Source: Blepharisma japonicum
Taxonomy: Eukaryota > Ciliophora > Heterotrichea > Heterotrichida > Blepharismidae
Assembly: GCA_949751835.1 (NCBI GenBank)
Contig: CATKHK010000122.1
Span: forward strand, 1 to 64,000
Length of the DNA: 64,000 nucleotides
Direction of reading: 5' to 3'
In this document: piece after piece, positions 11,515-21,475 of the stretch
Layout of the letters: the number at the start of each line of letters is the position of its first letter
How positions within the stretch are numbered: the first letter of the stretch is position 1
Position numbers and translations under genes: made by a program
The notes under the pieces: generated by a model
The model's database searches: none
Seen by the model: only the letters and a program-made list of their open reading frames with translations
What the model was told of the DNA's origin: nothing

Positions 11515-13134
11515 ATGTTAAAATTTTTATATCCTGCTTTATGGATTTCTCAATTCGGGGTAGACCAAGGATGGTCTAGTTATAATGACAACCCAAGAGT
11601 TGTTGGTGATGTCGATGGAGATGGGAAAAGTGATATCATAGGTTTTGGGAACGATGGCACTTACGTCTCTTTATCAAGTGGACAGGACTTTGGGACTGCT
11701 AATAGATGGGTCAGTAACTATGCAAAATCTGCAGGAGGGTGGACCAGCTATGATCAATACCCAAGATTTGTAGCAGATGTGAATGGAGACAAAAAAGCTG
11801 ATGTCATTGGCTTCGGATCTGCAGGCACTTATGTGTCAACATCAACAGGGTCAGGATTTACAGAGCCTTCTATTTGGATTAAGAACTTTGCACGTGCAGC
11901 TGGAGGTTGGAGCAGCTTTGATTTATACCCAAGGTGTCTTGGAGATGTGAATGGTGATGGAAAAGCTGACATTATTGGGTTTGGAGCCCGTTATACTTGG
12001 GTTTCTTATTCAACAGGAAGCTCCTTTTCAAGTCCTCAAAATTTATTAACAGAATTTTCTTCCAGCTCTGGGTGGAGAAGCTTTAATGATACACCAAGAT
12101 GGGCCGGAGATGTAAATGGTGATGGAAAAGCCGACATTATTGGTTTCAATGGTACTGGAGTATGGGTTTCTTTATCCATTGGTACTGGGTTTTTACCCCC
12201 TGCGCTTTGGTCAGACTGGTTTGGAAACTCTGCTGATGCTGGAGATTGGACAAGTTTCGATCAACTCCCAAGGTTTGTAAAAGACGTAGACCATGATGGA
12301 AAAGCTGATATTGTTGGCTTTGGGCTCAATGGAATTTTTGTTGCCCTTTCAAATGGGCAGGGCTTTGACTTCCCCATTTTAATAACCATCAAATCTGGAA
12401 AGGGAGCTGGCAATAGTGGATGGAAATCATTTGAGAATCATCCAAGAATGATAGGTGATGCAAACGGGGATAGAATCGGTGACGTTATTGGCTTTGGAAT
12501 TCTAGGAGTCAACGTCGCTCAAGGGCAGAGTGATATCAGTCTTATAACTCCCATTAATTTAAAGGGTATGAAGGCTAATAGTACAGATTGCGAAGCAAAG
12601 TGCGCTAATAAATGTAAGGGCAATGGAATAAAATCAACCTGCTTAGAAGAATGCAAGGCACTTTGTGAATCCGCAGTAAAAGATTGCACTAAACAGCTTG
12701 AAAAGGGCGGCAAGGCTGATAGCAAAGATTGTGAAGCAAAGTGCGCTAATAAATGTAAGAACAATGGATCAAAATCAACCTGTTTGGATGAATGCCAGGC
12801 ACTTTGTGAATCCGCAGTAAAAGATTGCACTAATCTGCTTGGAAAGGGTGGCAAGGTTGATACCACAGATTGCGAAGCAAAGTGCGCTAATAAATGTAAG
12901 AACAATGGATCAAAATCAACCTGCTTGGATGAATGCCAGGCACTTTGTGAATCTGCAGTAAAAGATTGCACTAAACAGTCTGAAATAATGACTGTTGAAG
13001 TTTGGGCATGGATTTTGACTTTTGCAGTTCTTGGAGCTATCATTGTGGGTTATTTCAAAGGGAAGAAAAATTCGAAAAAAATCCTTTTTGATAGTCTTAA
13101 TGAGGGGTTAGAATCTCCTTATATCAGGGCTTAA
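11515..13134 (+). CDS. VCBS/FG-GAP (PVL-lectin-like) propeller protein, array copy 1
   Basis: A 539-residue protein. Residues about 15-350 hold six repeats of 55-60 residues. Each has W-S/T-S-F/Y...PR, a DVNGDGKAD-type calcium loop, then IIGFG...VSLS.G. This is the VCBS/FG-GAP propeller pattern and is close in style to the fungal GlcNAc-binding lectin PVL. A Cys-rich stretch of three 47-residue repeats follows (C-x3-C-x3-C...C-x3-C-x3-C), with units 2 and 3 nearly identical. One membrane segment lies at about 494-515, then a basic tail ending SPYIRA. No clear signal peptide is visible: the frame opens MLKFLYPALWISQFG, which already resembles a propeller strand. A surface carbohydrate-binding role is inference. 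Confidence 0.85.
   Translation: MLKFLYPALWISQFGVDQGWSSYNDNPRVVGDVDGDGKSDIIGFGNDGTYVSLSSGQDFGTANRWVSNYAKSAGGWTSYDQYPRFVADVNGDKKADVIGFGSAGTYVSTSTGSGFTEPSIWIKNFARAAGGWSSFDLYPRCLGDVNGDGKADIIGFGARYTWVSYSTGSSFSSPQNLLTEFSSSSGWRSFNDTPRWAGDVNGDGKADIIGFNGTGVWVSLSIGTGFLPPALWSDWFGNSADAGDWTSFDQLPRFVKDVDHDGKADIVGFGLNGIFVALSNGQGFDFPILITIKSGKGAGNSGWKSFENHPRMIGDANGDRIGDVIGFGILGVNVAQGQSDISLITPINLKGMKANSTDCEAKCANKCKGNGIKSTCLEECKALCESAVKDCTKQLEKGGKADSKDCEAKCANKCKNNGSKSTCLDECQALCESAVKDCTNLLGKGGKVDTTDCEAKCANKCKNNGSKSTCLDECQALCESAVKDCTKQSEIMTVEVWAWILTFAVLGAIIVGYFKGKKNSKKILFDSLNEGLESPYIRA
12586..12985 (+). repeat. 141-bp in-frame tandem repeat in propeller copy 1
   Basis: Three units start at 12586, 12727 and 12868, exactly 141 bases (47 codons) apart; the last is cut short before the membrane segment. 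Each encodes the Cys-rich hairpin (DCEAKCANKCK...CLDECQALCESAVKDC). Units 2 and 3 differ at only a few positions, so the expansion is recent. The neighbouring copies at 13631 and 15587 have only one diverged unit and the copy at 17671 has none. Confidence 0.9.
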
Positions 13135-13630
13135 TTATTTAAGCTATAAGCATTTAAAATTAAAATAGTCTTCATTGCTATAAATAATTGATTCAAGTTT
13201 AAATGTTTGAACTAATGGAATAAAACTTGCAAGATAAAACCTTATTTATTATGCTTTTAAATGAAAAATTATTTTAATCAGTTAAATACAACTTTTTGTT
13301 AGATTTTTAAAAAAAAAGACAATTTTATTTAAATAATAATTCTATAGTTCATGATATGCATAAAATAATTATTTAATTGCATAACTTTTACATCCAATTT
13401 TCCTTTTAATAGAATCTAATATTTTTATGTTTTTAATCAACAGTAATTGTTTATAAAGAGCCCTATGAAACTATTTTAAAGTGATTTGGCTCTATAGCAT
13501 CATCTATAAATAATTAATTACCGTAAACTATAATCTATTCATTATAAAATATATTTATTCAACTTATTATAATTTAGTAATTTAAGCCTAATTATATCTA
13601 ATTATTGTCAAAATTATCAATGGCTAATAA
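13135..13630. other. Intergenic spacer in the propeller array
   Basis: About 495 AT-rich bases without an open frame. Its last 20 bases resemble the leader of copy 1 (ATCAATGGCTA directly before the start). Confidence 0.5.
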
Positions 13631-14974
13631 ATGTTAAAGTTTTTATATCCTGCGTTATGGATTTCTCAATTTGGGGTAAACCAAGGATGGTCCAGCTTTA
13701 ATGAAAACCCAAGACTTGTTGGCGATGTCGATGGAGATGGGAAAAGTGATGTTATAGGCTTTGCAAATGATGGCACTTACGTCTCTTTGTCAAGCGGTAA
13801 AGATCTTGGAGATGGGAAAAAATGGGTCGGCAATTATGCCAGATTTGCAGGAGGATGGGCAAGTTATAATCAATACCCAAGATTTGTAGCAGATGTGAAT
13901 GGAGACAAAAAAGCTGATGTCGTTGGATTTGGACATGACTTCACGTGAGTGTCATTATCAACTGGATCGGGATTTGCAGAGCCTGCTATATGGGTCAAAA
14001 ATTATGCATATTCAATTGCATCTGGAGGCTGGAGCAGCTTTGATTTATATCCAAGATCCCTTGGAGATGTAAACGGTGATGGAAAAGCTGATGTCATTGG
14101 CTTTGGTGCTTCGTATACTTGGATTTCTTATTCAACAGGCAATTCATTTTCAGAACCTCAAAATTTATTAACAGAGTTTTCTGTAGATTCTGGGTGGAGA
14201 AGCTTTAATGATACACCAAGATGGGTCGGAGATGTAAATGGCGATGGCAAAGTAGACATTGTTGGCTTCAATGGCACTGGAGTATGGGTTTCCTTATCTG
14301 TTGGTACTGGATTTTTAGCTCCTACACTTTGGTCAGGATGGTTTGGAAATTCTGCTGATGCTGGGCACTGGACAAGTTTCGATCAATTTCCAAGGTTTGT
14401 AAAAGATGTTAATGGTGATGGAAAAGCTGACATCATTGGATTTGGGCTTGCAGGAATTTATGTTTCTCTTTCAAATGGAAAAGGATTTGATTTACCTCTA
14501 TTGGTGATGTTCCACTATGGAAAATTAGCTGCTGCTGGAGGATGGAATTCGTTTGAGAGGCATCCAAGAACTATAGGTGATGCAAATGGAGATGGAAATA
14601 GTGACATTTTTGGTTTTGGGATCGCAGGAGTCCATGTTGCTCTATCACTAGACGTTACAAATGCTATAAATCCTATTAACTTAAAGGGTATCAAGGCTAA
14701 TAGCACAGCATGTGACGCAAAGTGCACAAGCGAGTGTAAGGAGTATGGTCCAAGATCAAATTGTTTGGATAAATGTAAGGCAAATTGCGATTGCGAAGTG
14801 CAAAATGATACTAAGCAGTCTGAAGTAGGATCTTTCGGGGTTTGGATATGGATTGCATCTTTTGCAATTCTTGGAATTGTCGTTCTAAATTACTTTAAAG
14901 GGATGAGAAAATCCAAGAAAGTTCTTTATGCTGATTTTGGAGTGGAATCAGAAACTCCTTATATCAGGGCTTAA
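13631..14974 (+). CDS. VCBS/FG-GAP (PVL-lectin-like) propeller protein, array copy 2
   Basis: A 447-residue paralogue of copy 1, read through one TGA (13946-13948) that aligns with the Trp of YTWVS in copy 1. Six propeller repeats with DVNGDGKAD-type loops fill residues about 15-350. One diverged Cys-rich unit follows (CDAKCTSECKEYG...CLDKCKANCDC), then a membrane segment at about 400-422 and a tail ending TPYIRA as in copy 1. The N-terminus MLKFLYPALWISQFGV is nearly the same as copy 1, again without a clear signal peptide. High DNA similarity to copy 1 suggests recent duplication or gene conversion. Confidence 0.85.
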
Positions 14975-15586
14975 AAATTAAGCTAAAAAATAACTAAAAT
15001 AAAAAATCTTATACTAAATGTTTAATATAGTTGCTCTCAAATATATTATTGTATCAAAATTTTAAATGTCCCATAAGATGCAGTAACTTGAAATTTAAAA
15101 ATTTTACCAAATTAATTCTTTTTCTTTTTAATATAGATATCATTAGTTTAAATAAAGTCTTTTTCTCTTTAATAGAAATACAAAAATTCCTATTCTTTGA
15201 GAATTTTTTTTTTTTTCTTTTATCTATAATTTATATGTCTTCACCATTAAAAACCCAATAAGAATTTTTGGAACTATATAATAGAAAGTAATTTCACAAA
15301 ATTTTTTAAACCAGCACAACTGCAAAATAAATAATATAATTAAGGATATTTATTGTAAAAACTATCTTTGCTTTGCTTTCACTTTTACCAGAATTTATAA
15401 ATAAATTTTTAAAAATGCGCCAAGCAATTATTCATATAGATATGACGATCTTAGGTCATTTATTTTGTGATTTGTTTTAATATTCATTTGGATCTAAATC
15501 AAATTTCCCTTAAATTATTTTTATTGCTGAAGATATAATTGAGCTAACAGTTTAAACCTATATTTGTTGAGCTAATTAACTTATAA
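14975..15586. other. Intergenic spacer in the propeller array
   Basis: About 610 AT-rich bases. A 76-codon open frame at 15031-15261 is Phe/Leu/Ile-rich low complexity and looks like chance. Nothing else is recognised. Confidence 0.45.
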
Positions 15587-16921
15587 ATGATAAATTTTTT
15601 ATTTCCTGCTTTATGGATTTCCCAGTTCGGTTTTGAACAGGGATGACGTACTTATAACGAAAATCCTAGATATGTATGAGATGTTGATGGAGATGGCAAA
15701 AGTGACATCATTGGCTTTGGAAGAGATGGAGTTTATGTCTCATTATCTAGAGGAAAAGATTTTGCTCCTCCAAAACGATGGCTTATTGACTTCGCAAAAT
15801 ATGCTGGGGGTTTTACAAACCAGAATCTATACCCAAGACTAGTAGGTGATGTAAATGGAGATAAAAAAGCTGATATTGTAGGCTTCAACTCTGCAGGAAT
15901 CTTAGTATCCACATCAAATACTACAGATTTTACCGATTCTTCATTATGAAGTAAAGAAACTATATGTTCAAGTTCATCTTCTTCAGATTATTGTCCAAGA
16001 TTCCTTGGAGATGTAAACGGTGATGGCAAAGCAGATGTGATTATTTTTTACAGCAACAATATTTATATAGCTTTCTCAAATGGAAACTCATTTGCAAAAG
16101 CTACTTACTATTATTCGACAGATTTTGGATCAAGTTATGGGTGATCAAACATTAATCTAAATCCTAGATGAATTGAGGACGTAAACGGCGATGGAAAAGC
16201 AGATATTATTGGATTCAATGCAGATGGTGTGGTAGTTGCTTTATCAAATGGAGTTAACTTTGATAAGGCTACACTATGGTCATGGTGGTTCGGAAGCTCA
16301 GCTGATGCTGGAAGCTGGACAAATTTTGATCAATTTCCAAGATTTGTGAAAGATATGAACAATGATGGAAAAGCGGATATTATTGGGTTTGGATCAGCAG
16401 GAATTTATATAGCTTATTCTAATGGAAAACACTTTGAAGAACCCTTTTTGGCTTTTTCCAGTTTTGGGGCGGTTAGTAATGGTGGTGGTGGAAATTCATA
16501 TGACAGGCATCCAAGATTGGTTATGGATGTCACAGGGGATGGGCTTTTTGATATTATTGGATTTGGGAACTCTGGGACATTTGTTTCTGTAATGATTGAT
16601 GATGCAACTATTATAAAATCAATTAATTTAAATGTGATCAAAGCTGAGACATCATTGTGTGATGTAAAGTGCTTAAGTGACTGCGAAAGCAATGAACTTG
16701 AAACGAATTGCTTTGATAAATGCAAGACAAATTCATGTGAATATAATTCAAAACTTGATACTTCAGATTCTGAAGAGAAATTCTATGAGTTGTGGGCTTG
16801 AATTTTATTATTTGGAGTTCTTGGGGTTGCTGCGTTAGCTTGCTTAACAAGAAAATCAAGTAAAAATCTTTATCCTGAATTTTATGAAGGCTCGGAGATT
16901 TCTTATATGACATTAAAATAA
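15587..16921 (+). CDS. VCBS/FG-GAP (PVL-lectin-like) propeller protein, array copy 3
   Basis: A 444-residue protein that exists only if TGA is Trp: six TGA codons are needed, and several fall at the conserved Trp of the repeat (QGW, YGW) or of the membrane segment (LWAW). Six propeller repeats with DVNGDGKAD-type loops, one Cys-rich unit (CDVKCLSDCESNELETNC) and a membrane segment at about residues 400-420. The tail ends SYMTLK, a Tyr-x-x-Leu sorting-type motif. It is more diverged than copies 1 and 2. The start MINFLFPALWISQFG is placed by alignment with them. Confidence 0.85.
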
Positions 16922-17670
16922 TATTAACAACTTTGTGAAAAAATTGATGTATTCTTGGAATATAAAAATGTAAATTAATAAGGAAATTTCGAATAAAGGA
17001 TTCTTTATCATTTACATTGGATTTATTGATGAGTAATTATGTTTTTAATATTCTATGATACAAAATGATTTTATTTCTATGCAAGCTATTAAATTGTTGA
17101 TTATAATTTTGTAAAATATCCTAATTTGTAAGTTCTTTCTTAAAATGTATTGATTCAAGCTTTAATTCAGATTGCTGATTTTAAATCCATCCGCGGTGAA
17201 TCTCAAATTGAAATAAAGATTATATAATTTCATAGTTTTTATAATCAGGCAAATTATTTATGCTGTGCATATTTAATTTAAATTAAAGAGTCATAATCAC
17301 TATTTAGGAGTACCTAAATATAAAATTAGCAACTATTAATTATGATTTGCAATAAAGAGAGAGTAATTTAAATTATCTGAACTAAAAAAGAAATTCTAAT
17401 TATTTAGTTATAGCTACCATATTGTATTATTTGAGTAGCAAAATTATAAAAAAGGGTTTTTAATCAATTAGTTAAATTTAATATATTAAAAATCCAAATT
17501 TGCAAATATTTAAAAAACAAAACCTATTTAATAAAAATATTTATTTTTAAGAATAAACTATTAAATTACTTTTATCTAAATATTCATCAATTAGTGCTAG
17601 TTTTCATGTCAATTCCAAAGTTCCATCTTTATCAAGACCCACATTTTCTGCCAAGTATTCAATGGTTATA
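16922..17670. other. Intergenic spacer in the propeller array
   Basis: About 750 AT-rich bases without a credible open frame or RNA gene. The end (TATTCAATGGTTATA before the start at 17671) resembles the leaders of copies 1 and 2. Confidence 0.45.
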
Positions 17671-18891
17671 ATGATTTATTTTCTTCCACCCATCATATGA
17701 CTCAGTAACTTTTACGATACCAATACTTGGGCTAGTTTCAACAGCAATCCTAGGCTCGTCGGTGATATAAATGGTGACGGCACAGCTGATATAGTTGGTT
17801 TTTCAGATAATGGGATTAAAATTTCATATTCTTTGGTGCAAAATTTCACTGACCCAGTTAATTCACTCGGTGCTTTCTGCAGGAATGTTGGAGGTTGGAC
17901 ATCTCAAGACTTATATCCCAGATTTTTAGCAGATGTAAATGGCGATCATATAGCTGACATAGTTGGTTTTGGCTTTGATGCAGTCTATGTATCTATTTCT
18001 GATGCTTATAGAATAAATGATGCAACTCGTTGGATATATGATTTTTCTTTTTCTAATGGAGGATGGACAAGTTTTGACAAATATCCAAGAGCTTTAGGAG
18101 ATTTCGATGGAGACGGAAAAGATGATATCATTGGATTTGGCTATGACAACGTTTATGTATCACTATCTAATGGGAATCAATTTTTACCAATAAAAGTTGT
18201 ATCTCGCGAGTTTACATTTCTAGCAGGATGGTCAAGCTATGATTCTAATCCTAGAATGGTTGCTGATGTAAATGGTGATGGAAAAGCAGATATTATAGGC
18301 TTTAATTCTCAGGGGGTTTGGGTTGCACTATCAAATGGAGTTACTTTTAACAAAGCTGCACTCTGGTCAGCGCATGCTCCTGGGTCAAGCTTTAATCAAT
18401 ACCCAATAATTGTAAAAGACCTCAATGGTGACAAAAAAGCTGATATTGTTTCATTTGGAGATAGTTCGACTTCTGTAGCACTTTCTAATGGCAATGGATT
18501 TGATGAGCCTATATATTTGATGATGTATTTTGGAAGAAATAGCGAGGTTGAAAAATTTGATACTTTTGATTCGAAGCCAAGATTAATCGCAGATATTAAT
18601 AGAGATGGATATAATGATATTATAGGGTTTGGAGGTGAAGGAGTCCGTGTAGCTCTTAATGTACCTAATTATAATCCTCTGAAACTTAACGTAGGTGGCG
18701 AAAGTTTCAGGGATAGCGCAAAAGATGCTCAGAAAAAGGTAAAAGAAAGCAATAATGGCGGAATATTTGAGTATTTATCTTTCTTTATGCTTTTTGGGAT
18801 TGGAGCCTTAGTTTTCTTGATTTTAGTTGGAGCTAGCAAAGGAAAGAACGCTCAGATATCTCAAGCAAGAAATGAGTATGTCAGACTTTAG
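17671..18891 (+). CDS. VCBS/FG-GAP (PVL-lectin-like) propeller protein, array copy 4
   Basis: A 406-residue protein from ATG 17671, with one early TGA read as Trp (PPIIW). Six propeller repeats occupy residues about 15-335 (DINGDGTAD, DVNGDHIAD, DFDGDGKDD, DVNGDGKAD, DLNGDKKAD, DINRDGYND loops). The Cys-rich module of copies 1-3 is absent; a short charged linker leads to a membrane segment at about 365-387. The tail ends NEYVRL, again Tyr-x-x-Leu. It is the most diverged intact member and the closest relative of the broken fifth copy. No signal peptide is obvious. Confidence 0.85.
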
Positions 18892-19134
18892 ATTAAGTTA
18901 ATATACTCAAATAATTATTTTATACAATTGCTATTAAGGGATAAAGCTATATTTATATATTTAACTTAAATAATGCTCCTTTAGGATCATATATGAATAA
19001 GCATTAATATTTATCATCATTTCTTTTACATAATAACATGAACTATATTGATCGTATCTAATAGATCTATTCACTGGTATATTTACAATTCGATTTTATA
19101 ACTTACCATTTTTTTCAGATATTTGTTGGCTATA

Positions 19135-21475
19135 ATGCTTAACCCTCTCACGCCCGTTATTTGGATTAATAGCTTCATTTAGAGAACTTGGCCTAGATTC
19201 AATATTAATCAAAGACTTTTAGGCGATATAAATGGCGACGGCAAGACTGACATCATTAGTTTTGCTGATAGCGTATTCAAGTTTCATATTATACAGGAGG
19301 AAAAATTCACTGATCCAACTAATTTATTAGTCGCTTTCTGTAAAAACGTTGGAAATTGGACCTCTCAAGACAAATATCCCAGACTCCTAGGCGATGTAAA
19401 TGGAGATAAAATAGCTGGTATATCTGATTTTGGCTATGACGGAGTCTACGTGTTTACCTCAACTGCAACAAAAATAAATGACCCTTTTTGTTATATATAT
19501 GATTTTCTTTTGCTAATGAAAATTGGTACAGCTATGATAAATACCCAAGAGCTTTCGGAGATTTTGATGGATAGGAAAAGACGATATCATTAGATTTGGC
19601 TATAATAGTGTTTATGTGCCACTGTTAAACGAAAATCGATTTTTAAGAGGGAAAATGTGTCTAGTGACTTTAAAGTCCAAGAAGATAAACTAGTTACGAT
19701 CGAACTCCAAGAATGGTTACAGATATAAATGGTGATGGAAAAGCTGATATTATAGGTTTAATCTTAAAGGAGCTTTGGTTGCGTTATCAAATGGAGTGAT
19801 ATTTGATAAACTTCTTTTTAACGTCAAATCTTGGAGCTATGCAGGCTGGTCTAGCTTCGATCTGAAACTGTGAATGTTTTAAAGATTTTAATGGTGATAG
19901 AAGGGTTGATATTATAGCATTTGATGATTATGCAATTTCTGTAGCGCTCTCTACTGAAAATGGATTTGTATTTCTACCTTTTGATGCATTATTATGGAAG
20001 TAATACTCCTTAGCTTTTTACAAAAAATACAAGTCATATTTGAAGTAATGTATAATCAATAATTTTTTAGTAGTCTACTTTTTTAAAAGTTGGATTGCTA
20101 ATAGAGTTTCTAATCTTTTAATTATTCTCCTCTAAGAATTCAAGAAATACTTTGCTTGTCTTGTCAGTTTTATTTGATAGATAATAATTGATATTTAAAT
20201 TAAAGTCTCCCGTTATTATATCGCCATGATATTTTTCAATGTTTTTTAAGAGTTTTGTAAAACTTTCTATATTGCATTTAGGTTTTGCATAAACAAAACA
20301 AGTTTTAAATCCTGATCCTTCAGCAATTGCAAATTGATAATCATTACTACTCCTTTTTCTAAAATTTTCCAATGTTTAGAATCTCTGACGTAAATTTGCA
20401 ACCCTCAATTTTCCAATTTGAGAATCTTATCAAATTTTTTGCCTATTAATTCTCCAAGTCCACTCTCTAAAAGTCCTATAATATCACAGTTTGATCATTC
20501 TATCTCGTTTATTGCAAAATTTTTATTCCTAATTTGTTATTTTGAATGTCCACACAAGCAACTTTTATGCCATCTTTATCTGAGTTTAATTTATTTTTAT
20601 TTTTTTCATCATACCTTCAGGATTTTTATCAATAAGCTCATCAATTTTATAACTAATCAGGGATTTAAATTTTTTGCTTAAAGGTCCATCTGTTTTTATA
20701 TCAAAGCAGATGTAATTTTAATTTCTTTCCTCGCAAAATTTATGAAGTAAATATTCATTTGATCATATTACAGAACTCAATGATAAACTTTCTCTTTTTT
20801 TCCTTTTTCTATAAAACTTCCACCAACTTCATCTTCATTTTCATGTGTAATTTTAATAAGTGCTTGTGAAAAATGGGCAATTTTATTATAATATATTTTA
20901 GTACTCATGTGCTTGTTAATTTCAATCATATATTCTTTTAGTTGACTTTTATATAGCTCAGCATTGTTTACAATTGTGCATCTATCTGAATAGTGGCCAC
21001 TCTTATTACATTTTTGGCAGATTCTTGTAAAATAGTGTTCTATCATAAAATCTCTTCCTAAGATCTTGATACTTTTACCAAGATTTGTTTCAGATATTAA
21101 TGGGAGATATAACGATGTAGGATGATTGGGAAAAGTCGAGTTGGCATAGCTTTAGTTGAGCCTAATGCTGAAATTGCTACAATTGATATTGAAGCAGGTG
21201 GAGAATAAATCATGGATATCGCAAATACTACTGAGAAAAAAGTTAAGGAAAGCAATGGTACTGGGTTTTTTGAACATTTAGCTTCTTTTTTTATTGCAGC
21301 TGGAGTTTCAATATGCTTAATTATGACTGGAGCTCAAAAAGAAAAGAATGCCCCTATATATAGAACAAGAAATGAGATATCAAATTTTAAAATAGTTTAT
21401 GAGAAATATTTAAAAAAATTACCCTTTTTTCTTAAAAATGAATACATTTATCTTTTATCAAAAGAAATAGTTTAA
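19135..21475 (+). pseudogene. Propeller array copy 5, broken and interrupted by an insertion
   Basis: From ATG 19135 the sequence follows copy 4 closely at DNA level, but an early TAG, several frame changes and lost propeller loops destroy the frame. At about 20010 the similarity stops and resumes near 21066 (FVSDINGRYNDVG-like), so about 1.05 kb is inserted. The tail at 21212-21475 keeps the KVKESNGTGFFEHL linker, a membrane segment and GAQKEKNAPIYRTRNE, matching the copy 4 end, then runs on past it. It is a host gene relic in the last position of the array. Confidence 0.8.
20010..21065 (-). mobile_element. Fragment of a LINE-like (non-LTR) retrotransposon
   Basis: The block inserted in propeller copy 5 reads on the minus strand. 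At 20777-21046 there is a frame beginning MIEHYFTRICQKCNKSGHYS with a CCHC zinc knuckle (C-x2-C-x4-H-x4-C). At 20118-20372 a second frame has the GDFNLN motif of APE-type endonucleases (exonuclease-endonuclease-phosphatase fold) after FVYAKPKCNIESF. Zinc knuckle followed by endonuclease is the order in many LINEs. The region between is frame-disrupted and no reverse transcriptase is present. I could not see target-site duplications or an A-rich tail. The ends are set by where the copy 5 similarity stops and restarts. Confidence 0.6.

What the first reader, a model, noticed from the sequence alone, without database searches (positions are those of the whole stretch)
11515..21475. Tandem array of membrane-anchored, lectin-like propeller genes
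Five head-to-tail genes encode six-repeat VCBS/FG-GAP propellers of the PVL-lectin style, a variable Cys-rich stalk, one C-terminal membrane span and a short tail. The copies differ in stalk length (three, one, one, zero units) and divergence, and the last is dead: an actively evolving surface-protein family. Roles in cell-cell recognition, mating or prey contact are possible but unproven. I know of no described ciliate family of this layout.
Basis: partly seen in the sequence, partly recalled or inferred. Interest (0 to 1): 0.75.

Follow-up and report, generated by a model that had tools for sequence, protein, structure and literature searches.

The report
Leaderless membrane-anchored propeller-lectin gene array
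A ciliate genome carries a small tandem family of sugar-binding-type propeller proteins, related to mushroom and bacterial lectins, fixed to a membrane by a ciliate-made stalk, yet with no clear signal to send the propeller out of the cell, so which side of the membrane it faces is an open and testable question.

The parts
11515..13134 (+). gene 1: six-bladed propeller (11515 to about 12540), three Cys units (12571-12985), membrane span (about 13000-13056), basic tail ending SPYIRA; 539 aa
13631..14974 (+). gene 2: propeller, one Cys unit (14711-14794), span (about 14831-14887), tail ending TPYIRA; 447 aa, one TGA
15587..16921 (+). gene 3: propeller, one Cys unit (16658-16738), span (about 16790-16846), tail ending SYMTLK; 444 aa, six TGA
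17662..18891 (+). gene 4: propeller, no Cys unit, span (about 18775-18831), tail ending EYVRL; 409 aa (406 from the ATG at 17671); orthologous to B. stoltei P0075
19129..19967 (+). gene 5, 5' remnant, nearest to gene 4 (55% over its residues 2-129), broken by stops and frame changes
20047..21060 (-). retroelement piece inside gene 5 (CCHC-knuckle-like frame, below Pfam's cut-off), a genome-wide repeat; described only
21131..21475 (+). gene 5, 3' remnant (span and tail)

Best explanation
A small Blepharisma family of membrane-anchored receptors or adhesins. A propeller of bacterial-type PVL/FG-GAP ancestry entered the lineage once (inferred), was joined to a resident Cys-unit/span/tail module that this genome also uses in leader-bearing membrane proteins (homology shown), and was multiplied in tandem. 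The six-bladed head is held off the membrane by 0-3 Cys units, probably helical, acting as spacers (inferred). The basic tail, ending in Tyr-x-x-hydrophobic or similar, lies in the cytosol and may sort the protein for uptake (inferred; motif meaning recalled). The head most likely faces outwards or into a vacuole and binds glycans or glycoproteins at low valency, since 0-2 of 6 canonical GlcNAc pockets are kept per copy. How the head crosses the membrane without a clear signal peptide is not explained.
Against: No clear signal peptide: highest 9-residue hydropathy in the first 30 residues is 1.34, 1.34, 1.81, 1.94, 1.92 (genes 1-4, C17; gene 4 reaches 2.3 from its earlier ATG), against 2.76-3.74 in five leader-bearing relatives. 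TAA lies directly before the ATG in genes 1-3. Residues 1-10 are modelled as part of the folded ring (pLDDT 94 and 90). The charge argument is weak in genes 3 and 4, and two of the five leader-bearing relatives (C4a +4/+4, C62 +3/+4) show next to no charge difference themselves. Most sugar pockets are altered. No expression, localisation or binding data.
Confidence: 0.5

Rival explanations
1. Tail-anchored, cytosol-facing lectins: without a signal peptide the protein is made in the cytosol and inserted after synthesis by its C-terminal span, so the propeller faces the cytosol on an organelle or food vacuole and could sense glycans exposed by a damaged vacuole or an intruding microbe.
For: N-termini of genes 1 and 2 no more hydrophobic than ordinary window ORFs; no strong leader in the other copies nor at the start of the B. 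stoltei orthologue; span ends only 19-28 residues from the C-terminus; N-terminal strand closes the ring.
Against: Homology of stalk, span and tail to proteins with leaders and, less firmly, the tail charge argue for a cytosolic tail, the opposite orientation. Genes 3, 4 and C17 (1.81-1.94) lie above 24 of 25 other window ORFs of 250+ aa in N-terminal hydropathy. A Cys-rich stalk is unusual for the cytosol (recalled).
Confidence: 0.28
2. The propeller is a structural or protein-binding scaffold that has lost lectin activity.
For: Canonical Asn/Asp-Trp-His/Tyr triad intact in 2, 1 (2 by hand), 0, 1 and 0 of 6 blades in genes 1-4 and C17.
Against: The same crude count gives only 152 of 691 blades in 118 bacterial/metagenomic relatives, so low counts need not mean no binding; purifying selection on the head.
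Confidence: 0.2
3. Receptor for the mating glycoprotein gamone 1.
For: The gamone 1 receptor is only putative in the passages seen; gamone 1 carries N-glycans (PMC10892320).
Against: B. japonicum gamone 1 binds Con-A but not wheat germ agglutinin, and gamone 1 keeps slight activity after deglycosylation, a poor fit for a GlcNAc-type lectin; no mating-linked expression data.
Confidence: 0.04

Closest known systems
PVL-type fungal lectins (Agrocybe aegerita AAL2, Psathyrella velutina PVL, P. asperospora PAL)
   Same: Homologous W-shaped repeats with GGW connecting segments; strong sequence and fold match
   Different: AAL2 and PVL have seven blades and AAL2 six GlcNAc sites; here six blades, 0-2 canonical sites, and an added stalk, span and tail
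Bacterial/metagenomic VCBS/FG-GAP propellers
   Same: Up to 52% identity among the 120 listed; longest run of six repeats in 51 of 119 listed, P0075 included; at least three five-residue linkers after Trp, as in the ciliate copies, in 65 of 118
   Different: Several carry peptidase or other domains (Pfam column); a C-terminal span (hydropathy 1.8 or more) in 1 of 101 hits that begin with Met
S. griseus UmbA4 (9oee)
   Different: 25% identity; a subunit of a bacterial complex, no stalk-span-tail of this kind (recalled)
Blepharisma leader/Cys/span family (C4 twice, C62, C2, C6; B. stoltei P0127, P0130)
   Same: Homologous Cys unit, span, basic tail and terminal Tyr motif
   Different: Strongly hydrophobic N-terminal leader, other ectodomain, no propeller

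Membership tests
Pfam FG-GAP_3 (PF13517) | score above the curated cut-off | tested here: met
   61.6, 62.0, 74.7, 79.7 bits (cut-off 26.9); C17 copy 68.8
PVL-type lectin family | sequence and fold homology to PVL/AAL2 | tested here: met
PVL-type lectin family | seven blades | tested here: not met
   six repeats in each copy; six four-stranded blades in the models of genes 1 and 2
PVL-type lectin family | GlcNAc-site residues in most blades | tested here: not met
   0-2 of 6 per copy by a regular-expression alignment
PVL-type lectin family | GlcNAc binding | not testable with these tools
   needs recombinant protein
Type I membrane protein | N-terminal signal peptide | tested here: inconclusive
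   none clear by hydropathy; no trained predictor on hand
Type I membrane protein | C-terminal span with positive cytosolic flank | tested here: inconclusive
   right sign in 5 of 5 copies but weak in genes 3 and 4, and next to absent in 2 of 5 leader-bearing relatives
Tail-anchored membrane protein | no signal peptide | tested here: inconclusive
   as above
Tail-anchored membrane protein | single span within about 50 residues of the C-terminus (criterion recalled) | tested here: met
   span ends 19-28 residues from the C-terminus
Tail-anchored membrane protein | cytosolic N-terminal domain | not testable with these tools
   needs localisation

The most novel reading that the evidence does not exclude
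A laterally acquired, leaderless propeller lectin has become a family of membrane-fixed, cytosol-facing glycan sensors in a ciliate, built by grafting the head on to the host's own stalk-span-tail module.
Probability: 0.2. Interest if true: 0.7.

Novelty: new variant of a known kind. Interest (0 to 1): 0.45.

Why it matters
It joins a bacterial-type lectin head to a ciliate membrane module, with a spacer that varies by whole units between neighbouring copies. It also poses a clean topology question: homologous spans occur in proteins with and without a clear leader. Answering it would say whether Blepharisma displays these heads to food and partners or keeps them inside as sensors.

Tried and rejected
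Upstream signal-peptide exon behind a tiny intron: rejected for genes 1-3, where TAA directly precedes the ATG with no AG between them (and in genes 1 and 2 the nearest upstream AG is 50 and 46 bases away); not excluded for gene 4 and C17, which lack a nearby in-frame stop and have an AG at -17 and -8. The annotated B. stoltei orthologue of gene 4 starts at the same place.

Leaders as a general feature of the bacterial relatives: not upheld. By the same hydropathy measure (2.2 or more) a leader shows in 51 of 101 hits that begin with Met, and in 17 of 40 whose first repeat core lies within 110 residues of the start; 7 of 101 begin their first core within 40 residues. Some of those genes may be incomplete. 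So I do not claim that the ciliate copies lost an ancestral leader.

Known stalk family: Pfam and PDB give only weak matches, the Pfam ones below cut-off (TIL 0.037, Vanabin-2 0.011). The stalk is modelled with low confidence (pLDDT block means about 67-75 in gene 2, 36-78 in gene 1).

Protein search with the stalk region of gene 1: 810 candidates, none at E <= 0.01, so no stalked relative outside this genome was seen. B. stoltei showed only the gene 4 type by name among the best 120 of 1550 hits. The tree places the split between gene 4 type and stalked type before the species split, so loss in B. stoltei or a gap in the database are both open.

Papers: searches for ciliate with FG-GAP (1 paper), ciliate with propeller lectin, ciliate with VCBS, Blepharisma with lectin and Blepharisma with membrane protein, surface, conjugation list no paper whose title concerns this family. 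Only the open-licence library was searched, and of these listings only PMC10892320 was opened.

My own notebook entry 1 says that AAL2 has six blades; that was recalled and wrong (seven).

Dropped rows: the tree used 51 of 118 hits and 6 of 80 genome loci (exactly six repeats by a pattern). The first structure alignment used 37 of the 119 listed hits P0008-P0126 (P0075 among them) plus four window proteins; the second added P0127 and P0130. In the tree, two rows have long branches (L074, L080), 20 rows have unusual composition, and 19 of 60 inner branches are weak.

The automated pocket test reads gene 2 blade 3 as altered; by hand, allowing a two-residue insertion, it keeps Asn, Trp and Tyr. 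The test was not run on AAL2 itself, and it could not read 93 of the 691 blades in the relatives.

Full report
WHAT IS THERE. With TGA read as Trp, the window holds four intact head-to-tail genes of 539, 447, 444 and 409 aa. TGA = Trp is the published code of Blepharisma stoltei (PMC9942806, passages seen). A fifth, broken copy follows. Searches of the whole genome with genes 1 and 4 found these five and one more intact copy, 445 aa, on contig C17. Gene 4 has a B. stoltei orthologue of the same length, 79% identical, so the window comes from a relative of B. stoltei. A module-family protein of this genome is identical over 310 aa to a EukProt entry from transcriptome MMETSP1395, which I recall, not from a call, as B. 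japonicum.

POCKETS. In AAL2 each pocket uses an Asn/Asp, a Trp and a His, and mutants in the counterparts of Asn104 no longer bound a GlcNAc column (PMC4483166, section read). By a regular-expression alignment, allowing His or Tyr, the triad is intact in 2 of 6 blades (gene 1), 1 (gene 2; 2 by hand), 0 (gene 3), 1 (gene 4), 0 (C17) and 1 (B. stoltei). The same count in 118 bacterial/metagenomic relatives is 152 of 691 blades, 93 of which the pattern could not read. The ciliate heads are thus not unusual in this, but a PVL-like six-site GlcNAc lectin is not what the sequences show.

STALK, SPAN, TAIL. Gene 1 has three 47-residue Cys units (141-base repeat), genes 2 and 3 and C17 one each, gene 4 none. 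The models make the units helical, at low confidence. One span ends 19-28 residues from the C-terminus. The same module occurs in other genes of this genome (C4 twice, C62, C2, C6) and in B. stoltei (P0127, P0130). A profile comparison gives 98.4% probability, E 4.9e-15, over 97 columns. Tyr lies at -4 or -5 in genes 1-4 and in the five relatives measured, though not in C17, and in 0 of 35 other window ORFs of 200+ aa.

NO CLEAR SIGNAL PEPTIDE. The five module relatives begin with strongly hydrophobic leaders (highest 9-residue hydropathy 2.76-3.74). The propeller proteins score 1.34, 1.34, 1.81, 1.94 and 1.92 (genes 1-4, C17); gene 4 reaches 2.3 if its earlier ATG is used. Of 25 other window ORFs of 250+ aa, 24 lie between -1.03 and 1.74 and one antisense frame at 2.08. 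Genes 1 and 2 are thus inside the background, while gene 3, gene 4 and C17 lie a little above it and well below the leaders. In genes 1-3 TAA immediately precedes the ATG, with no AG between, so no upstream exon can be read into them, short of an intron that ends inside the frame. The N-terminal residues also form the closing strand of the ring. The leader-bearing relatives argue the other way. So does the charge around the span, but weakly: the difference is small in genes 3 and 4, and two of the five leader-bearing relatives show next to none. I weigh the two orientations at about two to one for the outside.

ORIGIN AND EVOLUTION. In a tree of 63 heads (6 ciliate, 51 hits, 6 genome loci) the ciliate rows form one group (100/95), with gene 4 and its B. 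stoltei orthologue on one side and gene 3, C17, gene 1 and gene 2 on the other. dN/dS over the head is 0.21-0.42 in all ten pairs (dS above 1 in nine, so rough), and 0.41-0.52 over the last 90 residues in the five pairs tested. The head is thus under purifying selection, with the stalk end looser and copy number and stalk length variable.

DEATH OF COPY 5. It is broken by stops and frame changes and contains about 1.0 kb of a repeat with at least 13 other places in the genome. Its knuckle-like frame (below Pfam's cut-off) and neighbouring frames would fit the APE-type non-LTR elements reported for B. stoltei (PMC9942806, passage); the link is inferred.

FUNCTION. The most likely reading is a low-valency adhesin or uptake receptor with the head outside or in a vacuole (0.5). 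The main rival is a cytosol-facing, tail-anchored sensor (0.28). A gamone 1 receptor is unlikely, as B. japonicum gamone 1 binds Con-A, not wheat germ agglutinin, and gamone 1 is slightly active without its N-glycans (PMC10892320, section read).

Noticed in passing
window:20047-21060: Retroelement piece, a repeat with at least 13 other places in the genome at 73-85% identity.
   Followed up: partly
window:11515-18891; L009:2608-3945: Genes 1, 2 and 4 nearly avoid TGA for Trp (TGG:TGA 16:0, 16:1, 7:1) while gene 3 and the C17 copy use it freely (7:6, 8:7); perhaps an expression-linked codon preference.
   Followed up: no
window:13949-14974: A database protein (P0007) equal to the 3' part of gene 2 lies on a 1,374-base contig, close to the 1,344 bases of the gene 2 coding sequence: possibly a transcript, source not shown.
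   Followed up: no
L040 (G000:C67:196000-200500), minus strand: A different FG-GAP protein with a hydrophobic C-terminal stretch, without the GGW connecting segments.
   Followed up: no
L011 and L010 (C4, C62), upstream of the starts: An AT-rich element with ATGGATG just before the start codon, similar in the three module genes; a looser ATGG(C/T)-TATAA-like form in genes 1, 2 and 4; may be a shared initiator.
   Followed up: no
L038 and L036 (C6, C2): Leader-bearing relatives with highly acidic or His-rich ectodomains, the same Cys unit, span and terminal Tyr motif: a wider Blepharisma membrane-protein family without a Pfam match over cut-off in the three members scanned (C62 and the two of C4).
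   Followed up: partly
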